A stretch of DNA of 64,000 nt from a virus, in the IMG/VR virus record IMGVR_UViG_3300032331_002067, positions 36,002 through 100,001 of that record. One strand, written 5' to 3'. Position 1 is the stretch's first letter; each line of letters opens with the position of its first letter. The notes under the pieces are model-generated. The model was not told the DNA's origin, made no database searches, and saw only the letters and a program-made list of their open reading frames with translations. Shown here one piece after another: positions 27,285 through 54,852 of this stretch. A program made the position numbers and the translations under genes.

Positions 27285-27890
27285 TTATCTTTGTTGAACA
27301 AAAGTCTGGAATGGAGCACCTGTGTATGGATCAAATTTAGATGCTACAGAGAGAGCTTTGTTGATAGCAGTCTTGGCTTTGGCTAGAGGGAGTTCCTTGC
27401 CATTGCTAAGGGCGTGCAGAGCGCCTAGGGCGTAGGATGAGCCACTGCCAATGGCGTAGATACCGGCTTTATCTGAAGTCCAAGAGTAGTCTCCATCAAT
27501 AATATAGATCGTTCCGTTAATAACGACAACTATTTGTGATGAATGTTCAGCGATATGATCTTTCGCATCATTGTCAGGCATGGCATATCCGGTACTCTCA
27601 AAGCATTCACGCAAGGATGGAACAAATTTTTGAGTTATGAACTGATCAAGTTTTGGACCAGATGTTACAAAACTTGGAACTGGGGGAATAAAGGCGTGGT
27701 GCAATATGTTGATAGCTCTTACATCGCCAGCAGCTCCGAGAAGGTATCTGCCATTTTGAGCAACTTTGCTACTACCTGTCCCTAGAGTTGTTATCTGATA
27801 AGCCATTCCTGATTCATCAAAAGATGAAACTCTGGAGTCAGTACAGATAACTGCATAATCATCGCCTTGAATTCCTACAATTGTTGTCAT
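27285..27890 (-). CDS. Proteasome beta/HslV-like Ntn peptidase
   Basis: 201 residues from ATG at 27890, so that loss of Met exposes Thr as in proteasome beta subunits; a 9-residue longer start is rejected for that reason. TTIVGIQGDDYAVICTDSR contains Thr1 and the Asp17 equivalent, SSKVAQNGRYLLGAAGD the Lys33 equivalent and turn, and GSGSSYALGAL the later conserved Ser/Gly. It may form its own ring, or compete with or exploit the host proteasome. No ATPase partner lies nearby. Confidence 0.85.
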   Translation of the reverse strand: MTTIVGIQGDDYAVICTDSRVSSFDESGMAYQITTLGTGSSKVAQNGRYLLGAAGDVRAINILHHAFIPPVPSFVTSGPKLDQFITQKFVPSLRECFESTGYAMPDNDAKDHIAEHSSQIVVVINGTIYIIDGDYSWTSDKAGIYAIGSGSSYALGALHALSNGKELPLAKAKTAINKALSVASKFDPYTGAPFQTFVQQR

Positions 27891-27991
27891 TTCTGCCTTT
27901 AGATACTGATGGGGCACCCCAAGATATCAGGTCTAATCTTTCGAAATAGTACCCGCCAAAGAGTGCCCCAAACTTAGTATAGCGTAGTTTG

Positions 27992-32985: not shown

Positions 32986-33056
32986 TCCTAAGCACTAATC
33001 GGTGCGGTGTAGCTCCCCAATTGATAATATTAAAGCCTACTACTACAGGAGCCTCA

Positions 33057-35126
33057 ATGACCAACAATAATCCTAAGGAAGATTTCTTTTCCTTCAAACT
33101 AAGCGAAGATTTTACTGCTACATATCGCACAAAGAAAGCACCATTCGGCTATCAGGATGCAGCAGGGAACTCTGTTGGAGAAATTACCTTTCTTCGCACA
33201 TATTCCCGAAAGAAACCAGATGGAACCAAGGAGACTTGGGTTGATGTTTGCGAGCGTGTAATCAACGGAATGTATTCTTTGCAAAAGGATCATTGTCGAA
33301 AGAATCGTCTTCCTTGGAATGGTGTAAAGGCTCAGTCAAGTGCCAAAGAAGCTTTTGATCGCCTGTTCAACCTTAAGTGGACACCACCGGGTCGTGGTCT
33401 TTGGATTATGGGAACTGAGCTTGTGAATGTTCAGCGCAACTCTGCTGCTTTGCAGAACTGTGCATTCGTATCTACTGCGGAAATGTCAAAGGACAATCCG
33501 GCGGAACCATTTGCGTTTCTGATGGAAGCATCAATGCTCGGAGTGGGTGTTGGCTTTGACGACAAGGGTGCTGATAAAGATTTTACCATCCATGAATCAA
33601 TTCGCCCAGTAATCACTCAGGTTATTGATGACACTCGTGAAGGGTGGATGCAATCAACCGCTGACCTGATCAACTCTTATTTGAAACCAGAACAGAGTCC
33701 GATTGTTTTTGACTACTCAATGATTCGCCCAGCAGGAGCACCTATTAAAACATTTGGTGGTACAGCTGCTGGTCATGAACCGCTCGAAAAGTTGCACAAA
33801 TATATTCGTAAGATGTTCCTAGGTCGTGCAGGTCAAAAACTTACACGAGTTGATATTGCAGACATTGGCAACATGATTGGAGTTTGTGTTGTATCGGGCA
33901 ATGTACGCCGTTCTGCTGAACTTCTAATCGGTAGACACAACGATGAGACCTTCTTGAATTTAAAGAACGCAGAAGCCTTCCCAGAGCGTAACTCTTATGA
34001 TCCAGAGAATCAGGGATGGGCTTGGATGAGCAACAATTCTGTAGAAACAAATGTTGGCGAAGATCTATCTCACATTGTTGAAAGTATTGCTCTCAACGGA
34101 GAACCCGGAGTCATCTGGTTGGATATGTCTCGTAAGTATGGTCGTCTAATTGATCCACCAAATAACAAGGACTGGCGTGTAGCTGGATACAACCCATGCG
34201 CAGAACAATCTCTTGAATCATACGAGTGCTGCACCCTTGTTGAGACATATCTCAACCGCCATGAGTCTCTTGACGACTATAAGCGCACATTGAAATTCGC
34301 TTACCTTTACGCAAAGACCGTTACTCTTCTTCCGACTCATTGGGAAAAGACAAATGCAATTATGCAGAGAAACCGCCGTATTGGAACATCAATGTCTGGC
34401 ATCGCAAACTTTGCTGACAATCATGGGGTTCCGACACTTCGTGAATGGATGGATCAGGGTTACGAGACAGTTAAGCGTTACGACAATGTTTACTCAGAGT
34501 GGTTCGGTATCCGTGAATCAATCAAGATGACAACAGTTAAGCCTTCGGGAACTGTTTCTATTCTGGCAGGAGAATCTCCGGGAGTTCATTGGACTCCGGG
34601 TGGAGAATACTTCAATCGTGCAATTCGTTTTGCAAATGATGACCCAATGCTTCCTCTGTTCAAAATGGCTAACTACCGTGTTGAGCCAGCTTCTGAATCT
34701 CCAGATACAACAAGTGTTGTTTTCTTCCCGATTAAATCAAATGCTAAGCGTTCTGAAAAGGATGTGACAATATTTGAGAAGATGGCGATTGCATCAGTAG
34801 CCCAGCGTTACTGGTCTGATAACTCTGTATCGGTAACAATCTCATTTGATGCTGAAAAGGAAAAGGATCAAGTTGGAACTGTTCTTCATATGTACGATGG
34901 TCAGCTTAAAACTGTTTCGTTCCTACCTCAAGGCAACTTTACTTACCCACAAATGCCGTACACTCAGATTACAGAAAAAGAATATAAACAGGATGGTTTA
35001 GACAAACTATTTCCAATTGACTTCGCTGGTGTGTATGCAGGAATGGCTGCAGATGCAATCGGAGAAAGCTACTGCAGTACAGATTCTTGCGAAATCAAAC
35101 TTATCAAAGACAACATTGCTCATTAA
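33057..35126 (+). CDS. nrdJ: Adenosylcobalamin-dependent (class II) ribonucleotide reductase
   Basis: 689 residues from ATG at 33057 with AGGAG five bases upstream; the ORF extends 12 codons further but without a ribosome site. PGRGLWIMGTE near 111, first redox Cys135 (NCAFVS), the thiyl Cys381 and Glu383 in NPCAEQSLES, the partner Cys392, and TVKPSGTVSILAGE match the monomeric RTPR type of Lactobacillus leichmannii. The C-terminal CSTDSC is the shuttle pair. It makes deoxynucleotides from ribonucleotides and needs host B12. Confidence 0.93.
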   Translation: MTNNNPKEDFFSFKLSEDFTATYRTKKAPFGYQDAAGNSVGEITFLRTYSRKKPDGTKETWVDVCERVINGMYSLQKDHCRKNRLPWNGVKAQSSAKEAFDRLFNLKWTPPGRGLWIMGTELVNVQRNSAALQNCAFVSTAEMSKDNPAEPFAFLMEASMLGVGVGFDDKGADKDFTIHESIRPVITQVIDDTREGWMQSTADLINSYLKPEQSPIVFDYSMIRPAGAPIKTFGGTAAGHEPLEKLHKYIRKMFLGRAGQKLTRVDIADIGNMIGVCVVSGNVRRSAELLIGRHNDETFLNLKNAEAFPERNSYDPENQGWAWMSNNSVETNVGEDLSHIVESIALNGEPGVIWLDMSRKYGRLIDPPNNKDWRVAGYNPCAEQSLESYECCTLVETYLNRHESLDDYKRTLKFAYLYAKTVTLLPTHWEKTNAIMQRNRRIGTSMSGIANFADNHGVPTLREWMDQGYETVKRYDNVYSEWFGIRESIKMTTVKPSGTVSILAGESPGVHWTPGGEYFNRAIRFANDDPMLPLFKMANYRVEPASESPDTTSVVFFPIKSNAKRSEKDVTIFEKMAIASVAQRYWSDNSVSVTISFDAEKEKDQVGTVLHMYDGQLKTVSFLPQGNFTYPQMPYTQITEKEYKQDGLDKLFPIDFAGVYAGMAADAIGESYCSTDSCEIKLIKDNIAH

Positions 35127-35178: not shown

Positions 35179-35517
35179 TTGAATCAAATGACTTCTGACA
35201 TGATTAAAAGTAAAAATATGTGGGTTCCAGAGCGTGCTTATGGCATCTGTCTCTGGATTATGCCAGACGGTTTCCCGTTATCCGATGGGGATGGTGTTCT
35301 TTGCGCAGAAGGAATGATCGGTGATGAAGCTCTTGAGCTTCGTGTTGCGGAAGTCGCAAAGTATTGGACAGGTTCTGATGCTGGAGTTATCCGTTGGGTT
35401 CCCGGTGCAAGAAAAGTTTCTTCTGATGAAAGAGATGACCAAGCAGAAAGACTTGCTGCTGGTCTGGTTGCTGACCCATTTGAAGATATGTATGACCAGC
35501 ACTTTGGGGGTAAATAA
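35179..35517 (+). CDS. Hypothetical protein before portal
   Basis: 112 residues from TTG at 35179, placed 10 bases after AGAAAG; ATG at 35188 is an alternative. The stop overlaps the portal start. Contains GEAxELRVAEVAKYWTG-like helix and WVPGARKV. Position suggests a head-assembly role. Confidence 0.6.
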   Translation: MNQMTSDMIKSKNMWVPERAYGICLWIMPDGFPLSDGDGVLCAEGMIGDEALELRVAEVAKYWTGSDAGVIRWVPGARKVSSDERDDQAERLAAGLVADPFEDMYDQHFGGK

Positions 35518-37148
35518 TGGATAACAAAATGGTTCTGTCACAGGATGATGATGACTTCAGCGAAGAAATTGACGACCTTTCTTATATTTCAGCTTTAGCT
35601 AAAGTCGATGCAGTTGACCCTTTTTCTGAAGTAAAGATTTCAAGTCTTTCTCCAAAAATGAAAAGAAAAGCTCAGCGTCTTCAAAAAAGACATGAGGGAG
35701 AAGACGGAACAAAGTCTAAGTATCTTGATCCAGAAGTTGTTAACGGTTATTCACTATGGGATATTGTTAATCCGCCATATGATTTAGATAGTCTTGCAAT
35801 CCTATACGACCAGAGTTCAATTCACTATGCAGCTATTAATGCAAGAGTAATGAATACCGTTGGTCTTGGTTTTGAATTTGATGAAACTCTTAAATCAAGA
35901 AGGCGTATTGAAAAAGTACAGGGTGAGCCATTAAAACTTGAAAAGACTCGTAAAAGCTTACAAGATCTTAGGGAAGAGCTTGAAGTTCTTTTTGAAAGTT
36001 TCAATGTTGAAGAAACATTGATTGAGACAATGGTTCGTGTTTGGCAAGATTGTCTTACAGTCGGTAATGGTTATTTAGAAATTGGTCGCAATAATGAGGG
36101 CAAGGTCGGTTATATCGGTCATATCCCTGCAACGATGGTTCGTGTAAGAAGGCGTAGAGATGGCTTTGTGCAACTCTCAAGGGCTAACAAGATCCAAGCT
36201 ATTTTCTTTAGAAACTTTCAAGACCTAGAGATGGAAGATCCCGTTAATGGCGATCCAAAGCCAAATGAAATTATTCATTTCAAGATGTATTCTCCAAACA
36301 GCACTTACTACGGTATTCCTGCAGCAGTTTCTGCAGCAGCAGCAATCATTGGGGATAAATTTGCAAAAGAATATAATATTGATTATTTTGAAAATAAGGC
36401 TATTCCTCGTTATGCAATTATCCTTAAAGGTGCAAAACTAAGCAATAAGTCAAAAGCTGAACTTGTTAATTACTTCCGCAATGAAGTTAAAGGTAGAAAC
36501 CACGGAACACTTGTTATCCCTCTTCCTGCCAGTATTGGTTCTGATTCAGATATCCGATTTGAGAAACTTGAAGCTGGAGTTCAGGATGCTTCATTTGATA
36601 AGTATCGTAAATCTAACCGTGATGAAATCCTCGTAGCCAACAGAGTTCCTGCACCAAAAGTTGGTGTTTATGATAATGCAAACCTTGCTGTATCACGAGA
36701 TGCGGATAAGACATTTAAGATGCAAGTAATTGGTCCAGACCAAGCAATTATTGAAAAGAAGATCAACAGACTTCTTGCTGAGTTCACAGACCTCCTTCAG
36801 TTCAAGCTTAAGAAGATTGACTTGCTTGATGAAGATATGGAATCAAGAATTTATGACCGTTACCTCAGAACTGAAGTTATCAGTCCTAATGAGGTTAGAG
36901 GTAAGATTGGATTCCCAGAACGGAAGGATGGCGATGATGTCCTTCCTTTCCCAACAAAGATCAAACAAGAGAACGCAGGAGCACCAGTTGGAAATTCCAA
37001 CAATGCTTCCTCTAATCCACCAAAATCTAGATCAGACAGTGGAGCAACACCAAGTGGGGTTCAGGGTTCCGGAGATCAAAAAGAAAGAGGTCAGGCACAA
37101 GACTCGGGTGATAATACAACCGCTAATACTGACCAAGGAGGAAACTAA
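35517..37148 (+). CDS. Portal protein, PBSX/HK97 type
   Basis: 543 residues. Conserved blocks include YDLDSLAILYDQSSIHYAAINARV, LTVGNGYLEIGRN, and YYGIPAAVSAAAAIIGDKFAKEYNIDYFENKAIPRYAII, typical of PBSX-family portals. The C-terminal 60 residues are polar and Gln/Ser-rich. It forms the dodecameric DNA channel. No terminase gene precedes it in the window. Confidence 0.9.
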   Translation: MDNKMVLSQDDDDFSEEIDDLSYISALAKVDAVDPFSEVKISSLSPKMKRKAQRLQKRHEGEDGTKSKYLDPEVVNGYSLWDIVNPPYDLDSLAILYDQSSIHYAAINARVMNTVGLGFEFDETLKSRRRIEKVQGEPLKLEKTRKSLQDLREELEVLFESFNVEETLIETMVRVWQDCLTVGNGYLEIGRNNEGKVGYIGHIPATMVRVRRRRDGFVQLSRANKIQAIFFRNFQDLEMEDPVNGDPKPNEIIHFKMYSPNSTYYGIPAAVSAAAAIIGDKFAKEYNIDYFENKAIPRYAIILKGAKLSNKSKAELVNYFRNEVKGRNHGTLVIPLPASIGSDSDIRFEKLEAGVQDASFDKYRKSNRDEILVANRVPAPKVGVYDNANLAVSRDADKTFKMQVIGPDQAIIEKKINRLLAEFTDLLQFKLKKIDLLDEDMESRIYDRYLRTEVISPNEVRGKIGFPERKDGDDVLPFPTKIKQENAGAPVGNSNNASSNPPKSRSDSGATPSGVQGSGDQKERGQAQDSGDNTTANTDQGGN

Positions 37149-37411
37149 TGGCAGAAGGTCAGACAATGATTTTTGCAATGGCAAATGTTACATCAAGTGA
37201 TGGAGTGGTAAGTATTGGAAGACATACATCACAAATATCATTCATGAACCAAGGTGCAGATTTTGTAGATATTAAATTAAATGGTAGACATATCATTAAA
37301 ATTGGACACGGGCAAGTTGAAGCGCATTTTTACAATTCAATTGATGGTGATTACACCACTTTTGAAGTATTAACTGCGGGTCAGACTGTTTCCATGTATG
37401 CCCTCGGGTAA
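37148..37411 (+). CDS. Small beta protein, duplicated (copy 1)
   Basis: 87 residues, starting at the portal stop. SDGVVSIGRHTSQI..LNGRHIIKIGH..GDYTTFEVLTAGQTVSMYALG is repeated by the next gene, so this is a tandem duplication. A small beta-sandwich capsid decoration role is plausible from position. Confidence 0.65.
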   Translation: MAEGQTMIFAMANVTSSDGVVSIGRHTSQISFMNQGADFVDIKLNGRHIIKIGHGQVEAHFYNSIDGDYTTFEVLTAGQTVSMYALG

Positions 37412-37422
37412 AGGAGAAAAAA

Positions 37423-37683
37423 ATGAGTAGTATTGTATATACAACAACAGCTATTGCAAGCACAGACGGAGTGGTGCCAATCGGACATCATACTGATTAC
37501 TTGTTCGTATGGAACGCAAATAGTACAACAAGTGCCGTTATTGAATTGAATGGAAGACATCAAGTTCTTATTCCACATTCACCAACTAATGGTAGTCACA
37601 TGTATCATAAAATTCCGGGAGATTATACAACCATTAAAGTTGTTACAGCCGGTGTTACGCTTTCTGCTTATGCAGTTGGGTAA
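37423..37683 (+). CDS. Small beta protein, duplicated (copy 2)
   Basis: 86 residues, with AAAGGAGAAAAAA upstream. STDGVVPIGHHTDYL..LNGRHQVLIPH..GDYTTIKVVTAGVTLSAYAVG parallels copy 1 throughout. Confidence 0.65.
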   Translation: MSSIVYTTTAIASTDGVVPIGHHTDYLFVWNANSTTSAVIELNGRHQVLIPHSPTNGSHMYHKIPGDYTTIKVVTAGVTLSAYAVG

Positions 37684-37725: not shown

Positions 37726-39813
37726 ATGGAAAACTTTAATTTATCTTTCCCGATTGAAATGATCAAGAAAGAGCAAAGAATTATTAGTGGTATCGCTACT
37801 GCTGATAATGTTGACAAATCTGGTGATATTGTTGACTTTTCTGCATCTCTTGAAGCATTTAAAAATTGGGGAGGGAACATCCGTGAGATGCACTCCCCTA
37901 TTGCTGTTGGCAAGGCTGTCAATTTTGAGCCAATCAAAATTAAAGGCGAAGATGGCGAAGAGTACAATGCTATTCGTGTAGATGCTTATATCTCAAAGGG
38001 TGCACAGGATACTTGGGAAAAGATTCTTGATGGCACTCTTCAGGCTTTCTCTATTGGCGGGAAGATTCTTCAAAAGAGTGAATCAGCAGAAAAGATGTTC
38101 CGAGGAAGACCTGTCAATGTTATTGAGAAGTATGTTCTTGGTGAATTGAGCGTGGTTGATAATCCAGCTAACGCTTTGGCAACCGTTGATATCATTAAGA
38201 GAAGTGATGATGGCGGTCTTGACTATGTTCTTGATAAAGCTTCTCCCCTCAAAGATCCCAAGGGCGGTCTTACAGCAGCAGGTCGTAGACACTTTAAAGA
38301 AACAGAAGGTGCAAATCTCAAACCCGGAGTTAAGGGTCCAGCAGATACCCCAGAGAAGATGCGTAGAAAAGGTTCTTTCCTTACACGCTTTTTCACAAAT
38401 CCATCTGGTCCTATGAAGGACTCAAAGGGAAGACCAACAAGGCTTGCGCTTTCAGCAGCAGCTTGGGGGGAACCAGTCCCGCAGAACGCACAGGATGCAG
38501 CAGAACTTGCTGCAAAAGGTCGCAGACTTCTTGAACGCTATCAGAATACTAAAGAAAAAAGTATGAAGAAAGAAGGGGAAGTCACATCAGGCTCAATGGG
38601 AGCTGGTATCAAGAACCCTACTCAAGGTAGTTTTCAAGGTCCATTCCCCGGGAAGCCTAAGAAAAAGAAAAAGGAGTTTTCTATGAAAAATAAAATTAAG
38701 AAAAGCTCTCCATTGACTGAATCGTTGAACAATCTTTTGTCCAACACCGCAGTTCTGTACTTCTCTTCGCATAGAGCGCATTGGAATGTTGAAGGTGTAG
38801 ATTTCCGTGAATATCATGATTTGTTTGGTGAAATTTATGAAGATACATATGATTCGATTGATCCAATTGCAGAAAGTATTAGAAAACTTGGAGACTTTCC
38901 AATTGCATTGGGAGATGCAGAGGATATGTCCTCATACGAGGATGACTCGGCAACAACAGACGCAAGAGAGCTTGCAATGGACATTTATGAAAAGAACAAG
39001 GTGTACCTAGAAATGGTAAAAGAAGCCTTCAATGTAGCAAACGATTCAGATGAACAAGGTGTCGCAAATCTCCTTGCAGGAAGAATTGAAATGCACGAAA
39101 AGTGGGATTGGCAACTTCGTGCTTCTCTTGGTATTTCAACAGGAACGCCTACAGAAGATCCTGAAGAGGATGGAATGGAAGATGATTCGTCTGAAGAGTA
39201 CCCAACTGAATCACTTACTGCAATGCTTACACAAATTTTAGAAATGTCTAATAAATCTGATACAGACGCAGATTTAGTTAAAATGCAAGAGAATGAATTG
39301 CAAAATGATGCAAATTATGATAAGGTCTTAAACATGAATGAACAAGAATCAAGATTGTCGCTACTTAAGCGTATGGTCAATTGGCTTGTTCCCGATGTAC
39401 AAGAAAATGCTTCAATCCAAATTGAAGTAACTGAAAACACACAGGAGGAAATTATGGATATTGAAATCCTTAAAGATGCTCTTAGTGCTGTGGTTGACGA
39501 AAAACTGGCTGCCTTCGCTACTTCAATTAAAGAAGAGGTTGAAGCTTCGGTTCAAGAAAAAATCGACACCATCACCAAGGGATTTGAAGTTCAAACAACT
39601 GAACTTCAAGAAAAATTAGAAGCAACAGAGCAATCTCTGTCCGAGCAAGAGGAGAAGGTTCAAGCCTTCGCTAAGTCCGGTGCTATCAAGAAAAGCGTTG
39701 ACCCAGAAGATGATGAAGAGGGCGAGGAACTTACCAAGTCTGCTCCATCATCAATTTGGGACAATACATATTTGCCACAAGGTTTAATTAACTCCTTGGG
39801 CTATAAGTCATAA
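37726..39813 (+). CDS. Prohead protease - Dps-like - scaffold fusion
   Basis: 695 residues. Residues 1-160: XkdF-type prohead protease with His56 (MHSPIAVGKA) and Ser109 (FSIGG). Residues 175-275: DUF6321-like region (KDPKGGLTAAGRRHF, GSFLTRFF). Residues 325-480: a Dps/ferritin-like four-helix domain (LNNLLSNTAVLYFSSHRAHWNVEG, H352, H364, D379, E383; the usual acid at 368 is Gly). Residues 577-695: coiled-coil scaffold. Strong internal ribosome sites precede in-frame ATGs at 38683 (AAGGAG) and 39454 (AGGAGG), exactly at domain borders, so nested shorter products are likely. Confidence 0.85.
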   Translation: MENFNLSFPIEMIKKEQRIISGIATADNVDKSGDIVDFSASLEAFKNWGGNIREMHSPIAVGKAVNFEPIKIKGEDGEEYNAIRVDAYISKGAQDTWEKILDGTLQAFSIGGKILQKSESAEKMFRGRPVNVIEKYVLGELSVVDNPANALATVDIIKRSDDGGLDYVLDKASPLKDPKGGLTAAGRRHFKETEGANLKPGVKGPADTPEKMRRKGSFLTRFFTNPSGPMKDSKGRPTRLALSAAAWGEPVPQNAQDAAELAAKGRRLLERYQNTKEKSMKKEGEVTSGSMGAGIKNPTQGSFQGPFPGKPKKKKKEFSMKNKIKKSSPLTESLNNLLSNTAVLYFSSHRAHWNVEGVDFREYHDLFGEIYEDTYDSIDPIAESIRKLGDFPIALGDAEDMSSYEDDSATTDARELAMDIYEKNKVYLEMVKEAFNVANDSDEQGVANLLAGRIEMHEKWDWQLRASLGISTGTPTEDPEEDGMEDDSSEEYPTESLTAMLTQILEMSNKSDTDADLVKMQENELQNDANYDKVLNMNEQESRLSLLKRMVNWLVPDVQENASIQIEVTENTQEEIMDIEILKDALSAVVDEKLAAFATSIKEEVEASVQEKIDTITKGFEVQTTELQEKLEATEQSLSEQEEKVQAFAKSGAIKKSVDPEDDEEGEELTKSAPSSIWDNTYLPQGLINSLGYKS

Positions 39814-39830: not shown

Positions 39831-40862
39831 ATGGCATCACAAGAAGAAATTCTATCAAAGGCTAATGAAGTAACAACTGGGGTTGTAGGTAATGATTCGG
39901 GTGGTTTGATGAAGCCACAGCAGTCAAACCGCTTCCTTGATTTTGTTATTGATCAGTCTGTACTTATGCAGAACGCAAGAGTCGTTCGTATGCGTACACC
40001 ACAAATGGAAATCGATAAGGTTTCTGTAGGCACTCGCTTGCTTTCAAAGGCAACCGAGGCAACAGATGATGGCTCAAATGCAGCCGTCACATTCAGCAAG
40101 GTCTCATTGTCCACCGTCAAGCTTCGTCTTGATTGGGCACTGTCAACCGAGTCGTTGGAAGACAACATTGAGGGAGCTTCTTTGGAGGACCACATCGCAC
40201 AGATGATGGCTCGCCAGACTGCAAACGACCTTGACGATCTCTTTATCAACGGAAACACAAGCTCCAACAACGGTCTCATTAAGGCTCTTGATGGTTTTGT
40301 TAAGCTTTCAAAGGCAAATGGTCGTGTAGTTGATGAGGCTGGTAATGGAGTTTCTCGTGCATCTTATGACCGTATCCTTCGTAACCTTCCAACCAAGTAC
40401 CTTCAGCGCAGAAATGAACTGAAGTTCTTCTCTGGTTCAGGTATCGTTCAGGACACAATCTACAGCCTTGGAAATCCAAACTCTGCAACAGCAGCAACAG
40501 CAGGCGCACCTGCACCATTCTCACAAGTCGGCGAACTTGCATTCTTGCAAGGCGCAATGCGTGGAAATGGTGGTGCTGGTTCAACTGGTATTTCACCATT
40601 CGGTATTCCGTTGGTTGAAATTCCTTTGATGCCAGAAACCGTTGCCGGTGATTATTCCGGAGCAGCTGGTTCACATGGTTATGTGGAACTCACATTCCCT
40701 AACAACCGTGTTATCGGTATTCACCGTGACATCACTGTGTATCGTCAGTTCAAGCCAAAAACAGACACTATTGAGTACACTCAGTTCATGAGAGTAGCAA
40801 GCAATATTGAAAATGCTGATTCGTATGTAATCGGTAAAAACCTTAAGCTTCGCACACTGTAA
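39831..40862 (+). CDS. Major capsid protein, HK97 fold
   Basis: 343 residues following the protease/scaffold gene. LMKPQQSNRFLDFVIDQSVL opens the P domain, LEDHIAQMMARQTANDLDDLFINGN is the conserved E-loop/helix region, and ISPFGIPLVEIPLMPE plus NRVIGIHRDITVYRQFKP the A domain. The gene is more GC-rich than its neighbours, as expected for the most expressed gene. GGAGGAAAC upstream. Confidence 0.92.
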   Translation: MASQEEILSKANEVTTGVVGNDSGGLMKPQQSNRFLDFVIDQSVLMQNARVVRMRTPQMEIDKVSVGTRLLSKATEATDDGSNAAVTFSKVSLSTVKLRLDWALSTESLEDNIEGASLEDHIAQMMARQTANDLDDLFINGNTSSNNGLIKALDGFVKLSKANGRVVDEAGNGVSRASYDRILRNLPTKYLQRRNELKFFSGSGIVQDTIYSLGNPNSATAATAGAPAPFSQVGELAFLQGAMRGNGGAGSTGISPFGIPLVEIPLMPETVAGDYSGAAGSHGYVELTFPNNRVIGIHRDITVYRQFKPKTDTIEYTQFMRVASNIENADSYVIGKNLKLRTL

Positions 40863-42395: not shown

Positions 42396-44381
42396 GTGAG
42401 AAAGTTAAGTTTCAAAAAAGGTTCTTGGATATTAATCCCTGTAATTATTCTTTCTTTTTTTGCAAATCCTGCAAAGGCTGACACATTCAGAACAGAAGGT
42501 GCAAATGATTTCTATTTTCAATTAGAAGTTGGCACGACATTTACTGCTAGAGCAGATGCTTGGTCACATGGAATTGATAGTCAATTATGGCTTTACAATA
42601 GTGAAGGAACTGTTGTTGCTGTCAATGATGATTATTTCTACCTTGATTCCTATATATCCTATGTAGTCCAACAGTCAGGAACTTATCGTTTAAGAACAAG
42701 TGTCTGTTGTGGTGATCCCAATAGATGGTACAACCAGTTTTATACTGTTGATACAAGTTCTACTCCAACAAATGCACCTGAAACAACTACAACCACAAGT
42801 AGTACAACAACGACTAGTACCACTACAACGAGCACAACTACTACTACGACTACATTGCCCCCATTAGTAATGGCTTCTCCAACAAACCTTGAGGCTCATG
42901 CATACGAAGGGAGTATTGCTCTTTCTTGGGATGCACCACAGGAAGGGGAAGGTTATGCACACCCAGAGCACTATGCAGTTTTCTTTTCTGATGACAATTG
43001 GCAAACTTCATATGCAATTTCAACCGGTAATACTTGGGCAGTTGTTTATAACTTAGTAAACGGTACAGAGTACCAGTTTAGAGTTCGTGCAGATAATGAT
43101 ACTCTTCATGTTTATTCATCACTTGTAGAGACTTATACAGTTAGATCAACTCCTGTTACCACGACAACATCTACGACTACAACAACCACCAGCACAACCA
43201 CAACCAGCTCAACACTGGCACCAACCACAACCACAACATCTACTACAACTATAGCACCTGAGCCTGAAACGACTACAACGACTGTTGAGGAGGTTGTTCC
43301 CCCTCCTGTTGAAACACTTCCAACAGAAAACACCACTGTTTCAATTCCTGAGATAAATCCAACCCCAGTTCCTACTCCAGAAATAGATATAACACCTGTT
43401 GAGATTCCTGTGGACCCAACGCCAACAATTGAGGTTCCTCAAGAAGTTCAAGACACTGTGGATAGTGCGGTTGCAGATATTTTTGATTCACCCATTTCAG
43501 ACGCAAAGCTTGGAGATGCTATTGATAATCTAGTAGCAGATGTCGGGACTCCAGAAGAACTTACGGCAGTGGTTAACTCACTTCTTGACCAAGAACTTAC
43601 TGATTCACAATTTGCTACGGTTATTGACTCCGTGTTCTCAGAACCATTATCCGATGAAAACTTCTCGGCTGCAGTAGAGGCTGTCTTTGATGACACATCA
43701 AAATTAAGCGCAGACCAGTTTGATGCTGCTGTTGAAGCAGTCTTTTCCGAGCCGTTATCTGACGAGCAATTCTCTGCTGCTATTGAGGCTATTTTTGATG
43801 AACCTATCTCAGATGAAAAGTTTGCATCAGTTATTGACTCTGTTTTAGACGAGCCTTTGTCAAATGAGCAGTTTGAAGCGGTTGTTGGAATTTTGGAATC
43901 AGATTCCGTTTCTGAAGAACAGGTGTCTAATGCCGTTGATAGCATTTTGGAACTTGGTGTTACAGAAGATCAAGCAACCGACCTTGCTACAAGCGCAAAG
44001 GTTTTGGAAAGTATTGATGCAGATCAGGCTACAGATATCTTTCAAGAGATTCCTGTTGCAGACCTATCTCCAACAGAAGAGGCTGCTCTTGTTGAGACAC
44101 TTACTAATGCCCCAACAGATATCAAAGAAGCCTTTGAAGGAGCGATTGATATCTTCGGAGAGGGATTGGATGATTATGTCCCTACAGGCTCTGGAATTGA
44201 TGTAAAAGCAAGAAGGGCACTCATTGCAGTCACTGCAGTTACAACAACGCTTGCAGGCGCTCCTGCGCCCTCTAGCGGGGGTTCTGGACCATCTGGCGGT
44301 GGACCATCTGGAGGCGGAAGCCCATCAGGGGATGAAAGTTCAAATAATGATCGTAAAACAAGACGGTCAAGGAGGAAATAA
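42396..44381 (+). CDS. Secreted Thr-rich FN3 surface protein
   Basis: 661 residues from GTG at 42396. Signal peptide 1-28 (basic start, IPVIILSFFANPAKA). A beta domain, then Thr/Ser runs (about 135-155), an FN3-like domain (ASPTNLEAHAYEGSIALSWDAP), more Thr/Ser/Pro linker, then helical repeats of the type FSEPLSDEQFSAAVEAVFDE (six or more units), and a Gly/Ser-rich basic tail. Thr runs and such repeats are typical of surface proteins of aquatic actinobacteria. A signal peptide on a gene in the late operon is unusual; it may coat the host surface or be a captured host gene. Confidence 0.75.
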   Translation: MRKLSFKKGSWILIPVIILSFFANPAKADTFRTEGANDFYFQLEVGTTFTARADAWSHGIDSQLWLYNSEGTVVAVNDDYFYLDSYISYVVQQSGTYRLRTSVCCGDPNRWYNQFYTVDTSSTPTNAPETTTTTSSTTTTSTTTTSTTTTTTTLPPLVMASPTNLEAHAYEGSIALSWDAPQEGEGYAHPEHYAVFFSDDNWQTSYAISTGNTWAVVYNLVNGTEYQFRVRADNDTLHVYSSLVETYTVRSTPVTTTTSTTTTTTSTTTTSSTLAPTTTTTSTTTIAPEPETTTTTVEEVVPPPVETLPTENTTVSIPEINPTPVPTPEIDITPVEIPVDPTPTIEVPQEVQDTVDSAVADIFDSPISDAKLGDAIDNLVADVGTPEELTAVVNSLLDQELTDSQFATVIDSVFSEPLSDENFSAAVEAVFDDTSKLSADQFDAAVEAVFSEPLSDEQFSAAIEAIFDEPISDEKFASVIDSVLDEPLSNEQFEAVVGILESDSVSEEQVSNAVDSILELGVTEDQATDLATSAKVLESIDADQATDIFQEIPVADLSPTEEAALVETLTNAPTDIKEAFEGAIDIFGEGLDDYVPTGSGIDVKARRALIAVTAVTTTLAGAPAPSSGGSGPSGGGPSGGGSPSGDESSNNDRKTRRSRRK

Positions 44382-53388: not shown

Positions 53389-54852
53389 ATGAATAAAATA
53401 ACAATCGTTGGGAGTGGTACAGCGGGTCTTGTCTCTGCTCTTATTCTTCATCAAGCTTTTCCACTGAAAAATATATCAATTGTTTCATCAAGTAAAATTG
53501 GAATCATTGGTGTTGGCGAGGGCAGTACAGAGCATTGGAAGATGTTTATGGAAATGTGCAATATACCTCTTGCTGAGCTTTTGATTGAAACAAGGGCTAC
53601 TCATAAAAATGGTATTAGGTTTGAGAATTGGACAAATCATACTCCAGACTATTTCCATTCAGTTGGGTTTGCTGATACCGTTCCTCCTTTTAATGTTTAT
53701 GGTCTTTATAACCACTTAATTAAAGATGGCAAGACCCTTACAGAAAATACAGTAAGTCGTTCTATTATTGAAAATAAAGTTAGAACTATTAATCCACATA
53801 CATCCGTTAATCAATATCATTTTGATACAAATGCTTTAAATAAATATTTAACAAAAATTGCTCAATATCGAGGTATTTCTTTTATTGATGCCGAAGTTAT
53901 TGATGTAAATCTGAATGAAGAAAATGGATTGATTAAATCAATTTTGCTTGATACTAATGAAATTGTTGAATCAGATTTTTGGCTAGATGCTACCGGTATT
54001 AAAAGATTTTTAATATCAAAAGTATCAGAGCCAAAATGGAAATCATTTTCTAAGTATTTACAAATGGACTCAGCAATCCCCTTTCCAACACCTAGTGATC
54101 CATCAGGACAGATTAGACCATACACAAGAGCAAGAGCTATGCCTAACGGATGGGTTTGGGAAATCCCTACACAGGATAGAAGGGGTAATGGCTATGTCTA
54201 TTCCTCATCTCATTGTTCTGATGAACAAGCTATTCGTGAAGTGTCTGAGCTTATGGGGTTTGATGTTGAGCCATTTAAAACTATTAAATTTAATCCCGGA
54301 CATTTAGAGGAGATGTGGGTCAAGAATTGCGTAGCTGTTGGTCTTGCATCTGCTTTTGTTGAACCCATTGAGGCGACATCTATTGGCGGAACCATTCAGC
54401 AAATCCGTTGTTTGGTTGAAAATCTTTCTACATACCAGCCAACGCATAATAAGGTGCAAAATGTTTTTAACAAAAAAATGAATGAGATGATGCAAAACAT
54501 TCTTGCATTCATATCATTGCATTATATCTCTGATAGAGAAGATACTTCCATGTGGAAGGAGCAAAAGGAAATGCCAAAACCTGACTATCTCGTAGACCTA
54601 CTTGATCTGTGGAATGAAAGACCTCCATTTCCTTTTGACATATCTTCAAATAATTATGAGATGTTTCAAGTTCCCCACTTCTACCATGTAGTTCAAGGAC
54701 AAAAATTGTTTAATTCGGATATGGCAAGAGTAATGCTCAATTCTTTTAATTTAGAAGAAAAAGCTAAATACGCTGCTTACGATGCTAAACTTAAACAATC
54801 AGATCACGAGAGGATTGACCATGCTGAGTCGCTCAGAGAAATTCAGATATAA
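53389..54852 (+). CDS. Flavin-dependent tryptophan-type halogenase
   Basis: 487 residues. FAD-binding VGSGTAG at 7-13, GVGEGST at 41-47 (usually GVGEAT), catalytic Lys73 in ATHKNGIRFENW, the WxWxIP signature GWVWEIP at 254-260, and FVEPIEATS near 323-331 are present. These enzymes chlorinate or brominate Trp or similar aromatic groups with FADH2 from a partner reductase, which is not encoded here. The full motif set suggests an active enzyme. Confidence 0.9.
   Translation: MNKITIVGSGTAGLVSALILHQAFPLKNISIVSSSKIGIIGVGEGSTEHWKMFMEMCNIPLAELLIETRATHKNGIRFENWTNHTPDYFHSVGFADTVPPFNVYGLYNHLIKDGKTLTENTVSRSIIENKVRTINPHTSVNQYHFDTNALNKYLTKIAQYRGISFIDAEVIDVNLNEENGLIKSILLDTNEIVESDFWLDATGIKRFLISKVSEPKWKSFSKYLQMDSAIPFPTPSDPSGQIRPYTRARAMPNGWVWEIPTQDRRGNGYVYSSSHCSDEQAIREVSELMGFDVEPFKTIKFNPGHLEEMWVKNCVAVGLASAFVEPIEATSIGGTIQQIRCLVENLSTYQPTHNKVQNVFNKKMNEMMQNILAFISLHYISDREDTSMWKEQKEMPKPDYLVDLLDLWNERPPFPFDISSNNYEMFQVPHFYHVVQGQKLFNSDMARVMLNSFNLEEKAKYAAYDAKLKQSDHERIDHAESLREIQI

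What the first reader, a model, noticed from the sequence alone, without database searches (positions are those of the whole stretch)
37726..39813. Dps-like ferritin domain inside the prohead protease/scaffold gene
Between protease and sc scaffold lies a four-helix Dps domain with four of five ferroxidase ligands (H352, H364, D379, E383; the fifth acid is Gly368). A DNA- or iron-binding module inside the maturing capsid could condense or protect packaged DNA or carry iron.
Basis: partly seen in the sequence, partly recalled or inferred. Interest (0 to 1): 0.8.

Follow-up and report, generated by a model that had tools for sequence, protein, structure and literature searches.

The report
Swappable Dps domain in phage scaffold
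Some tailed phages carry a small iron-handling protein domain (Dps, a mini-ferritin) inside the gene that builds and matures their capsid; near-identical relatives lack it, and unrelated phages have acquired it in the same place, so it is probably an optional part delivered into the growing virus head.

Summary
ORF 37726-39813 (695 aa) is one unbroken prohead protease (S78-like), DUF6321, Dps domain (aa 329-468) and coiled-coil scaffold. Pfam, PHROG, PDB-sequence and predicted-structure searches all identify Dps, including the BC helix. H352, H364, D379 and E383 are identical in 56 of 56 related phage Dps domains; position 368 is usually Gly, Ala or Ser.

(1) Dps is a toggling cassette: locus L015 has a 99% identical backbone but lacks a clean 480-bp (160-codon) insert, and the family tree needs at least 8 well-supported gains or losses. 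Dps and backbone histories conflict, so the module is exchanged. (2) It is under strong purifying selection (dN/dS mostly 0.04-0.09 where dS could be estimated). (3) Conserved internal ribosome sites before Dps and before the scaffold predict nested Dps-scaffold and scaffold-only products. (4) Related Dps domains sit inside or beside unrelated protease, scaffold, portal or capsid genes in several other head lineages.

Most likely, Dps rides into the prohead as an accessory metal-binding mini-ferritin, rather than as a DNA condenser (domain net charge -19). Function, dodecamer formation and retention in virions are untested. I found no paper describing this fusion.

The parts
37726..39813 (+). 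Protease-DUF6321-Dps-scaffold fusion gene, 695 aa
   Evidence: complete four-part fusion in single open frames in 16 loci
37732..38214 (+). S78-type prohead (head maturation) protease, aa 3-163; H56 and S109 invariant in the family alignment (candidate catalytic His and Ser)
   Evidence: phrog_9427 1.6e-53, PF04586; invariant columns
38251..38466 (+). DUF6321 domain, aa 176-247
   Evidence: PF19846 1.3e-29
38671..38685 (+). Internal Shine-Dalgarno AAGGAG (38671-38676) and in-frame ATG (38683, Met320): candidate start of a Dps-scaffold product
   Evidence: SD plus start in this linker in 10/17 Dps+ members (1.7 expected) and 18/31 Dps- members (4.4 expected)
38698..39177 (+). 480-bp (160-codon) cassette absent from L015 and L013, which otherwise align across it
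   Evidence: backbone tree
38710..39129 (+). Dps domain, aa 329-468, four helices plus BC helix
38779..38874 (+). Ferroxidase ligand positions: H352 (38779), H364 (38815), G368 (38827, acid in cellular Dps), D379 (38860), E383 (38872)
   Evidence: H, H, D, E 56/56 invariant, position 368 variable
39443..39456 (+). Internal Shine-Dalgarno AGGAGG (39443-39448) and in-frame ATG (39454, Met577): start of a scaffold-only product
   Evidence: ACACAGGAGG conserved in nearly all loci; CAG-GAG 78/79 against 29% background per codon; 25/25 distinct sites against 3.7 expected
39460..39675 (+). Scaffold coiled coil, aa 579-650, followed by a conserved C-terminal tail to aa 695
   Evidence: predicted single long helix; conservation
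39831..40862 (+). Major capsid protein, next gene
   Evidence: phrog_1623 1.3e-81, PF05065 6.5e-8
35517..37148 (+). Portal protein, upstream
   Evidence: PF04860 1.3e-31, phrog_12 2.9e-57

Best explanation
The gene encodes a phage protease-scaffold polyprotein into which a Dps mini-ferritin cassette has been inserted in frame, between DUF6321 and the scaffold. Internal translation starts most likely yield three nested products: the full protease-DUF6321-Dps-scaffold protein, a Dps-scaffold protein and scaffold alone. The scaffold part would carry Dps into the prohead as cargo. There the Dps subunits, as dimers or a dodecamer, would bind and probably oxidise Fe(II) at an intersubunit site that keeps four ligands but lacks the usual second-site acid, lowering iron and peroxide damage in the head or sequestering metal. 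The module is an accessory: phages gain, lose and exchange it without changing the rest of the gene. SHOWN: domain identity, single frame, ligand conservation, purifying selection, presence/absence and module exchange, conserved internal ribosome sites, recurrence in other head loci. INFERRED: use of the internal starts, loading into the prohead, oligomerisation, iron chemistry and benefit.
For: Dps identity by profile, sequence and fold. Four ligands 56/56 invariant among 56 distinct phage domains in several head systems, while median column conservation is 68%. dN/dS of Dps 0.04-0.09 against L002-L007, similar to the protease. Toggle: 12 changes on the backbone tree, at least 8 forced by well-supported branches; the window's nearest backbone L015 (99%) lacks Dps. 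Module exchange: the window's Dps groups with L003 (93%) while its backbone groups with L002, whose Dps is 88%. Internal starts. In the unrelated family B (L126, L127, L138, L140, L145, L149) a conserved GAGGAG/AGGAG-ATG start lies upstream of Dps, so the short product would contain Dps plus coil. Dps fused to or beside protease, scaffold, portal or capsid genes in lineages with different capsid families: phrog_1623, 3922, 777, 10, 2522.
Against: No product, virion or iron measurement exists here. Position 368 is acidic in only about 8-9 of 56 domains, so the dinuclear site is incomplete. The internal start before Dps is missing in 7 of 17 Dps+ members and occurs in Dps- members, so it is not specific to Dps. 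Scaffold and protease are normally lost on maturation (general knowledge), so Dps may not remain in the virion.
Confidence: 0.5

Rival explanations
1. The Dps domain is mainly an oligomerisation module: its dodecamer displays twelve scaffold or protease arms and so nucleates or sizes the prohead core. Metal is irrelevant.
For: The fold matches dodecameric Dps closely; the domain is attached to scaffold coils in families A and B.
Against: Near-identical scaffolds occur without it (L015, 99% backbone), so it is unlikely to be needed for assembly. All four metal ligands stay invariant, which bare oligomerisation does not require. Oligomeric state was not tested.
Confidence: 0.18
2. DNA condensation or protection: Dps binds the packaged genome inside the capsid.
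For: Some Dps proteins bind DNA through Lys-rich tails (general knowledge); the sequence KPKKKKKEFSMKNKIKK precedes the domain and the linker has net charge +11.
Against: The domain is -19 and the following segment -21. The poly-Lys stretch is also present in Dps- relatives. Scaffold normally leaves before or as DNA enters (general knowledge).
Confidence: 0.12
3. The Dps acts in the infected cell, not the head: a free or cleaved Dps buffers host iron and reactive oxygen, as proposed for stand-alone phage Dps; its place in the head operon only provides strong late expression.
For: Stand-alone phage Dps genes exist (Gratiaviridae and others, PMC8008677; S-SRM01 and Gilson).
Against: In-frame fusion to scaffold kept in families A and B, and placement at protease, scaffold or capsid genes in several lineages. 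No stop or separate Dps-only product is predicted in family A.
Confidence: 0.17
4. Chance resemblance or assembly artefact.
For: None found.
Against: E-values to 9e-24, fold match Z 22, many independent contigs, purifying selection.
Confidence: 0.01

Closest known systems
Dps / mini-ferritins (MrgA 2chp, PA0962 8ff9, Listeria Dps 1qgh)
   Same: Four-helix bundle with BC helix, about 30% identity to MrgA and PA0962, H/H/D/E ferroxidase ligands in register
   Different: Fused at both ends; acid of the second metal site mostly replaced by Gly/Ala/Ser; a set of invariant residues that differ from the two cellular Dps compared (e.g. K387, N424, E443-Q444-G445)
Phage protease-scaffold nested genes (lambda C/Nu3; P2 gpO), from general knowledge
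   Same: Protease and scaffold in one frame; in lambda the scaffold is also made from an internal start
   Different: An extra DUF6321 and Dps module between them and a second internal start; S78-like protease
Stand-alone phage Dps (Gratiaviridae, Lactobacillus phages; PMC8008677)
   Same: Phage-encoded Dps
   Different: Those are described as enzymes against oxidative stress; this one is part of the head gene
Encapsulated ferritins in encapsulins (HK97-fold shells; PMC5012862 abstract, PMC8791618 abstract)
   Same: Ferritin-like enzyme delivered into an HK97-fold shell
   Different: Encapsulins load cargo by targeting signals and the cargo there is EncFtn or others; here loading would be by scaffold fusion and the shell later holds DNA
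Ferritin-like gp217 of phage Sajous1, detected by mass spectrometry and linked by its authors to the 'ferrojan horse' hypothesis (PMC10892097)
   Same: Ferritin-like protein proposed to be tied to the virion
   Different: Separate gene next to a tail completion gene, assigned by Phyre2 only

Membership tests
Dps (mini-ferritin) | Dps fold: four helices plus short BC helix | tested here: met
Dps (mini-ferritin) | Significant match to Dps profiles or sequences | tested here: met
   PF00210, phrog_3636, PDB phmmer
Dps (mini-ferritin) | Intersubunit ferroxidase ligands H, H, D/E, D, E | tested here: inconclusive
   Four of five present and invariant; the third (position 368) is Gly here and acidic in only a minority of relatives
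Dps (mini-ferritin) | Dodecamer | not testable with these tools
   Only a monomer could be predicted
Dps (mini-ferritin) | Iron oxidation/storage or DNA protection | not testable with these tools
   Needs biochemistry; domain charge -19 argues against intrinsic DNA binding
Prohead serine protease (S78-like) | Family profile match | tested here: met
   PF04586 22.1 bits (cut-off 21), phrog_9427 1.6e-53
Prohead serine protease (S78-like) | Conserved His and Ser | tested here: met
   H56 and S109 invariant in the 25-member alignment; catalytic assignment is from general knowledge
Nested protease-scaffold gene | Internal in-frame start for scaffold | tested here: met
   Sequence level only; the product was not observed
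Encapsulin-type ferritin compartment | Cargo inside a DNA-free HK97-fold shell | not testable with these tools
   Location in the prohead is inferred

The most novel reading that the evidence does not exclude
Tailed phages have repeatedly turned their HK97-fold proheads into ferritin-loaded compartments by fusing Dps to protease, scaffold or portal proteins. This would be a phage counterpart of ferritin-carrying encapsulins, with the Dps kept in or acting on the virion.
Probability: 0.3. Interest if true: 0.82.

Novelty: new variant of a known kind. Interest (0 to 1): 0.63.

Why it matters
In the sources I could search, phage-encoded Dps is described only as a separate stress protein. A Dps module repeatedly built into unrelated head-maturation proteins, optional yet under purifying selection, suggests that iron or oxidative chemistry matters during capsid assembly or for the virion. 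It also gives natural plus/minus pairs to test this. If Dps reaches the prohead, it would parallel encapsulins, which are HK97-fold shells carrying ferritin-like cargo.

Tried and rejected
No phage record in INPHARED showed the window-type fusion at the thresholds used: full-length, Dps-only and family B/C/D queries found proteases without Dps, or separate Dps genes, in the rows listed. The genome-contig scan with the Dps alignment found no relative; the scan with the full alignment found one protease-only locus in a metagenome-assembled genome labelled cyanobacterium, so the host and the cellular donor of the Dps stay unidentified. Paper searches for Dps or ferritin with prohead/maturation protease found no description of the fusion; the library lacks most subscription journals. 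A literature check of nested lambda C/Nu3 starts found nothing useful, so that comparison rests on general knowledge. L089 and L099, where Dps-scaffold is a frame separate from the protease, looked like support for Dps belonging to scaffold, but L098, which carries the same Dps ligand segment, is unsplit, so L099 may be a sequencing error; I do not lean on it. The model for family B is low confidence outside Dps and coil. The full-length window model has low pTM, so only domains are interpreted. One query failed for a wrong frame.

Full report
OBSERVATION. The ORF 37726-39813 is a single 695-codon frame between a portal gene (35517-37148) and a major capsid gene (39831-40862). It contains an S78-type head maturation protease (aa 3-163), DUF6321 (176-247), a Dps/ferritin domain (329-468) and a C-terminal coiled coil. 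The Dps assignment is not marginal: PF00210 2.3e-13, phrog_3636 8.8e-24, PDB Dps chains to 3e-16. The predicted structure has the four helices and the short BC helix of Dps and matches dodecameric Dps chains at Z about 22, rmsd 1.3-1.6 A over about 143 residues.

THE MODULE IS OPTIONAL. A search of viral contigs with the whole protein returned 80 relatives. Most have the same protease, DUF6321 and scaffold but no Dps. The window's nearest backbone, L015, is 99% identical outside the Dps part and lacks a clean 480-bp, 160-codon segment (38698-39177). On a tree of protease + DUF6321 + scaffold (46 rows, 17 with Dps) the Dps label needs 12 changes; at least 8 are forced by well-supported branches. 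The family A Dps domains themselves are consistent with one clade (90/82 support), so the likely history is one capture followed by repeated loss and exchange. Exchange is visible directly: the window's Dps is 93% identical to that of L003 but its protease only 83%, while L002 shares 98% of the protease but 88% of Dps.

IT IS SELECTED. Pairwise dN/dS of the Dps part is 0.04-0.09 against L002, L003, L004, L005 and L007, similar to the protease. One more distant pair, L085, gives 0.20; for several others dS was saturated. Across 56 distinct phage Dps domains, H352, H364, D379 and E383 are invariant; the median column is 68% conserved. Position 368, acidic in the two cellular Dps compared, is Gly 23, Ala 11, Ser 10, Glu 8, Gln 2 and others.

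NESTED STARTS. Directly before the coiled coil, ACACAGGAGG followed by an in-frame ATG (39443-39456) is conserved at DNA level in nearly all family members. The Gln-Glu codons there are CAG-GAG in 78 of 79 cases against a 29% background for each. A second SD-start lies just before Dps (AAGGAG...ATG, 38671-38685). Under synonymous recoding with each gene's own codon usage, the scaffold start is seen in 25 of 25 distinct sites (3.7 expected). The linker start is seen in 10 of 17 Dps+ members (1.7 expected) and 18 of 31 Dps- members (4.4 expected). The linker start is therefore older than, or independent of, the cassette; Dps was inserted just behind it. Predicted products are the full protein, Dps-scaffold and scaffold. 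This rests on sequence only.

OTHER HEAD SYSTEMS. A search with the Dps alignment gave 74 further contig loci. Besides family A, the domain lies in: family B (L126, L127, L132, L138, L140, L141, L145, L147, L149, L150; a different protease type, Dps, coil; capsid phrog_3922 in L145), whose examined members have a conserved internal start upstream of Dps; L155, an 891-aa protein with portal/maturation-protease matches and Dps, next to capsid phrog_777; L095/L107, a protein that in L095 sits between an S78 protease and an HK97 capsid gene; and separate Dps genes beside capsid or portal genes (L110, L152, L134, L135) or in head operons (L103, L118, L129). By contrast, the two isolate Dps genes examined, in S-SRM01 and Streptomyces phage Gilson, are stand-alone and not beside annotated head genes. 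The sampling is biased towards relatives of this Dps, so this describes a head-associated Dps group, not all phage Dps.

MECHANISM. The best reading is an accessory mini-ferritin carried into the prohead by the protease-scaffold system. Optional presence argues against an essential assembly role; invariant ligands argue for metal chemistry; negative charge (domain -19, next segment -21) and a Lys-rich stretch shared with Dps- relatives argue against a DNA-condensing role. Whether the domain forms dodecamers, oxidises iron or stays in the virion is unknown.

NOVELTY. Phage Dps is known as separate genes (PMC8008677). Proteins with this architecture already sit in UniProt as automated entries, such as 'Ferritin/DPS protein domain containing protein [uncultured Caudovirales phage]', 679 aa. 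No paper describing the fusion was found in the library. I rate it a new variant of a known kind.

Noticed in passing
window 53389-54852 +: Tryptophan-halogenase-like gene (phrog_2928, 3.7e-106).
   Followed up: no
window 33021-35126 +: Class II (B12-dependent) ribonucleotide reductase just upstream of the head genes.
   Followed up: no
window 27285-27917 -: HslV-family peptidase match (phrog_1040, 4.5e-27).
   Followed up: no
window 37148-37411 and 37423-37683 +: Two adjacent small proteins (87 and 86 aa) between portal and protease that look like a tandem duplication; no confident family match.
   Followed up: no
window 42396-44381 +: 661-aa protein with Thr-rich stretches and a repeated 'PLSDEQFSAAIEAIF'-like motif; no confident family.
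   Followed up: no
L129 397-5052: 1552-aa head-morphogenesis protein with a C-terminal ADP-ribosyltransferase match, near a Dps protein.
   Followed up: no
L010, L059 and relatives, after DUF6321: Another small module (GEGYHQEGEKKG...MVPNCVPN) in the same variable linker, suggesting the linker accepts different inserts.
   Followed up: partly
L111, L113, L114, L119-L121: Dps domains with a one-residue insertion before the Asp of the D-x3-E ligand pair; ligands kept after realignment.
   Followed up: partly
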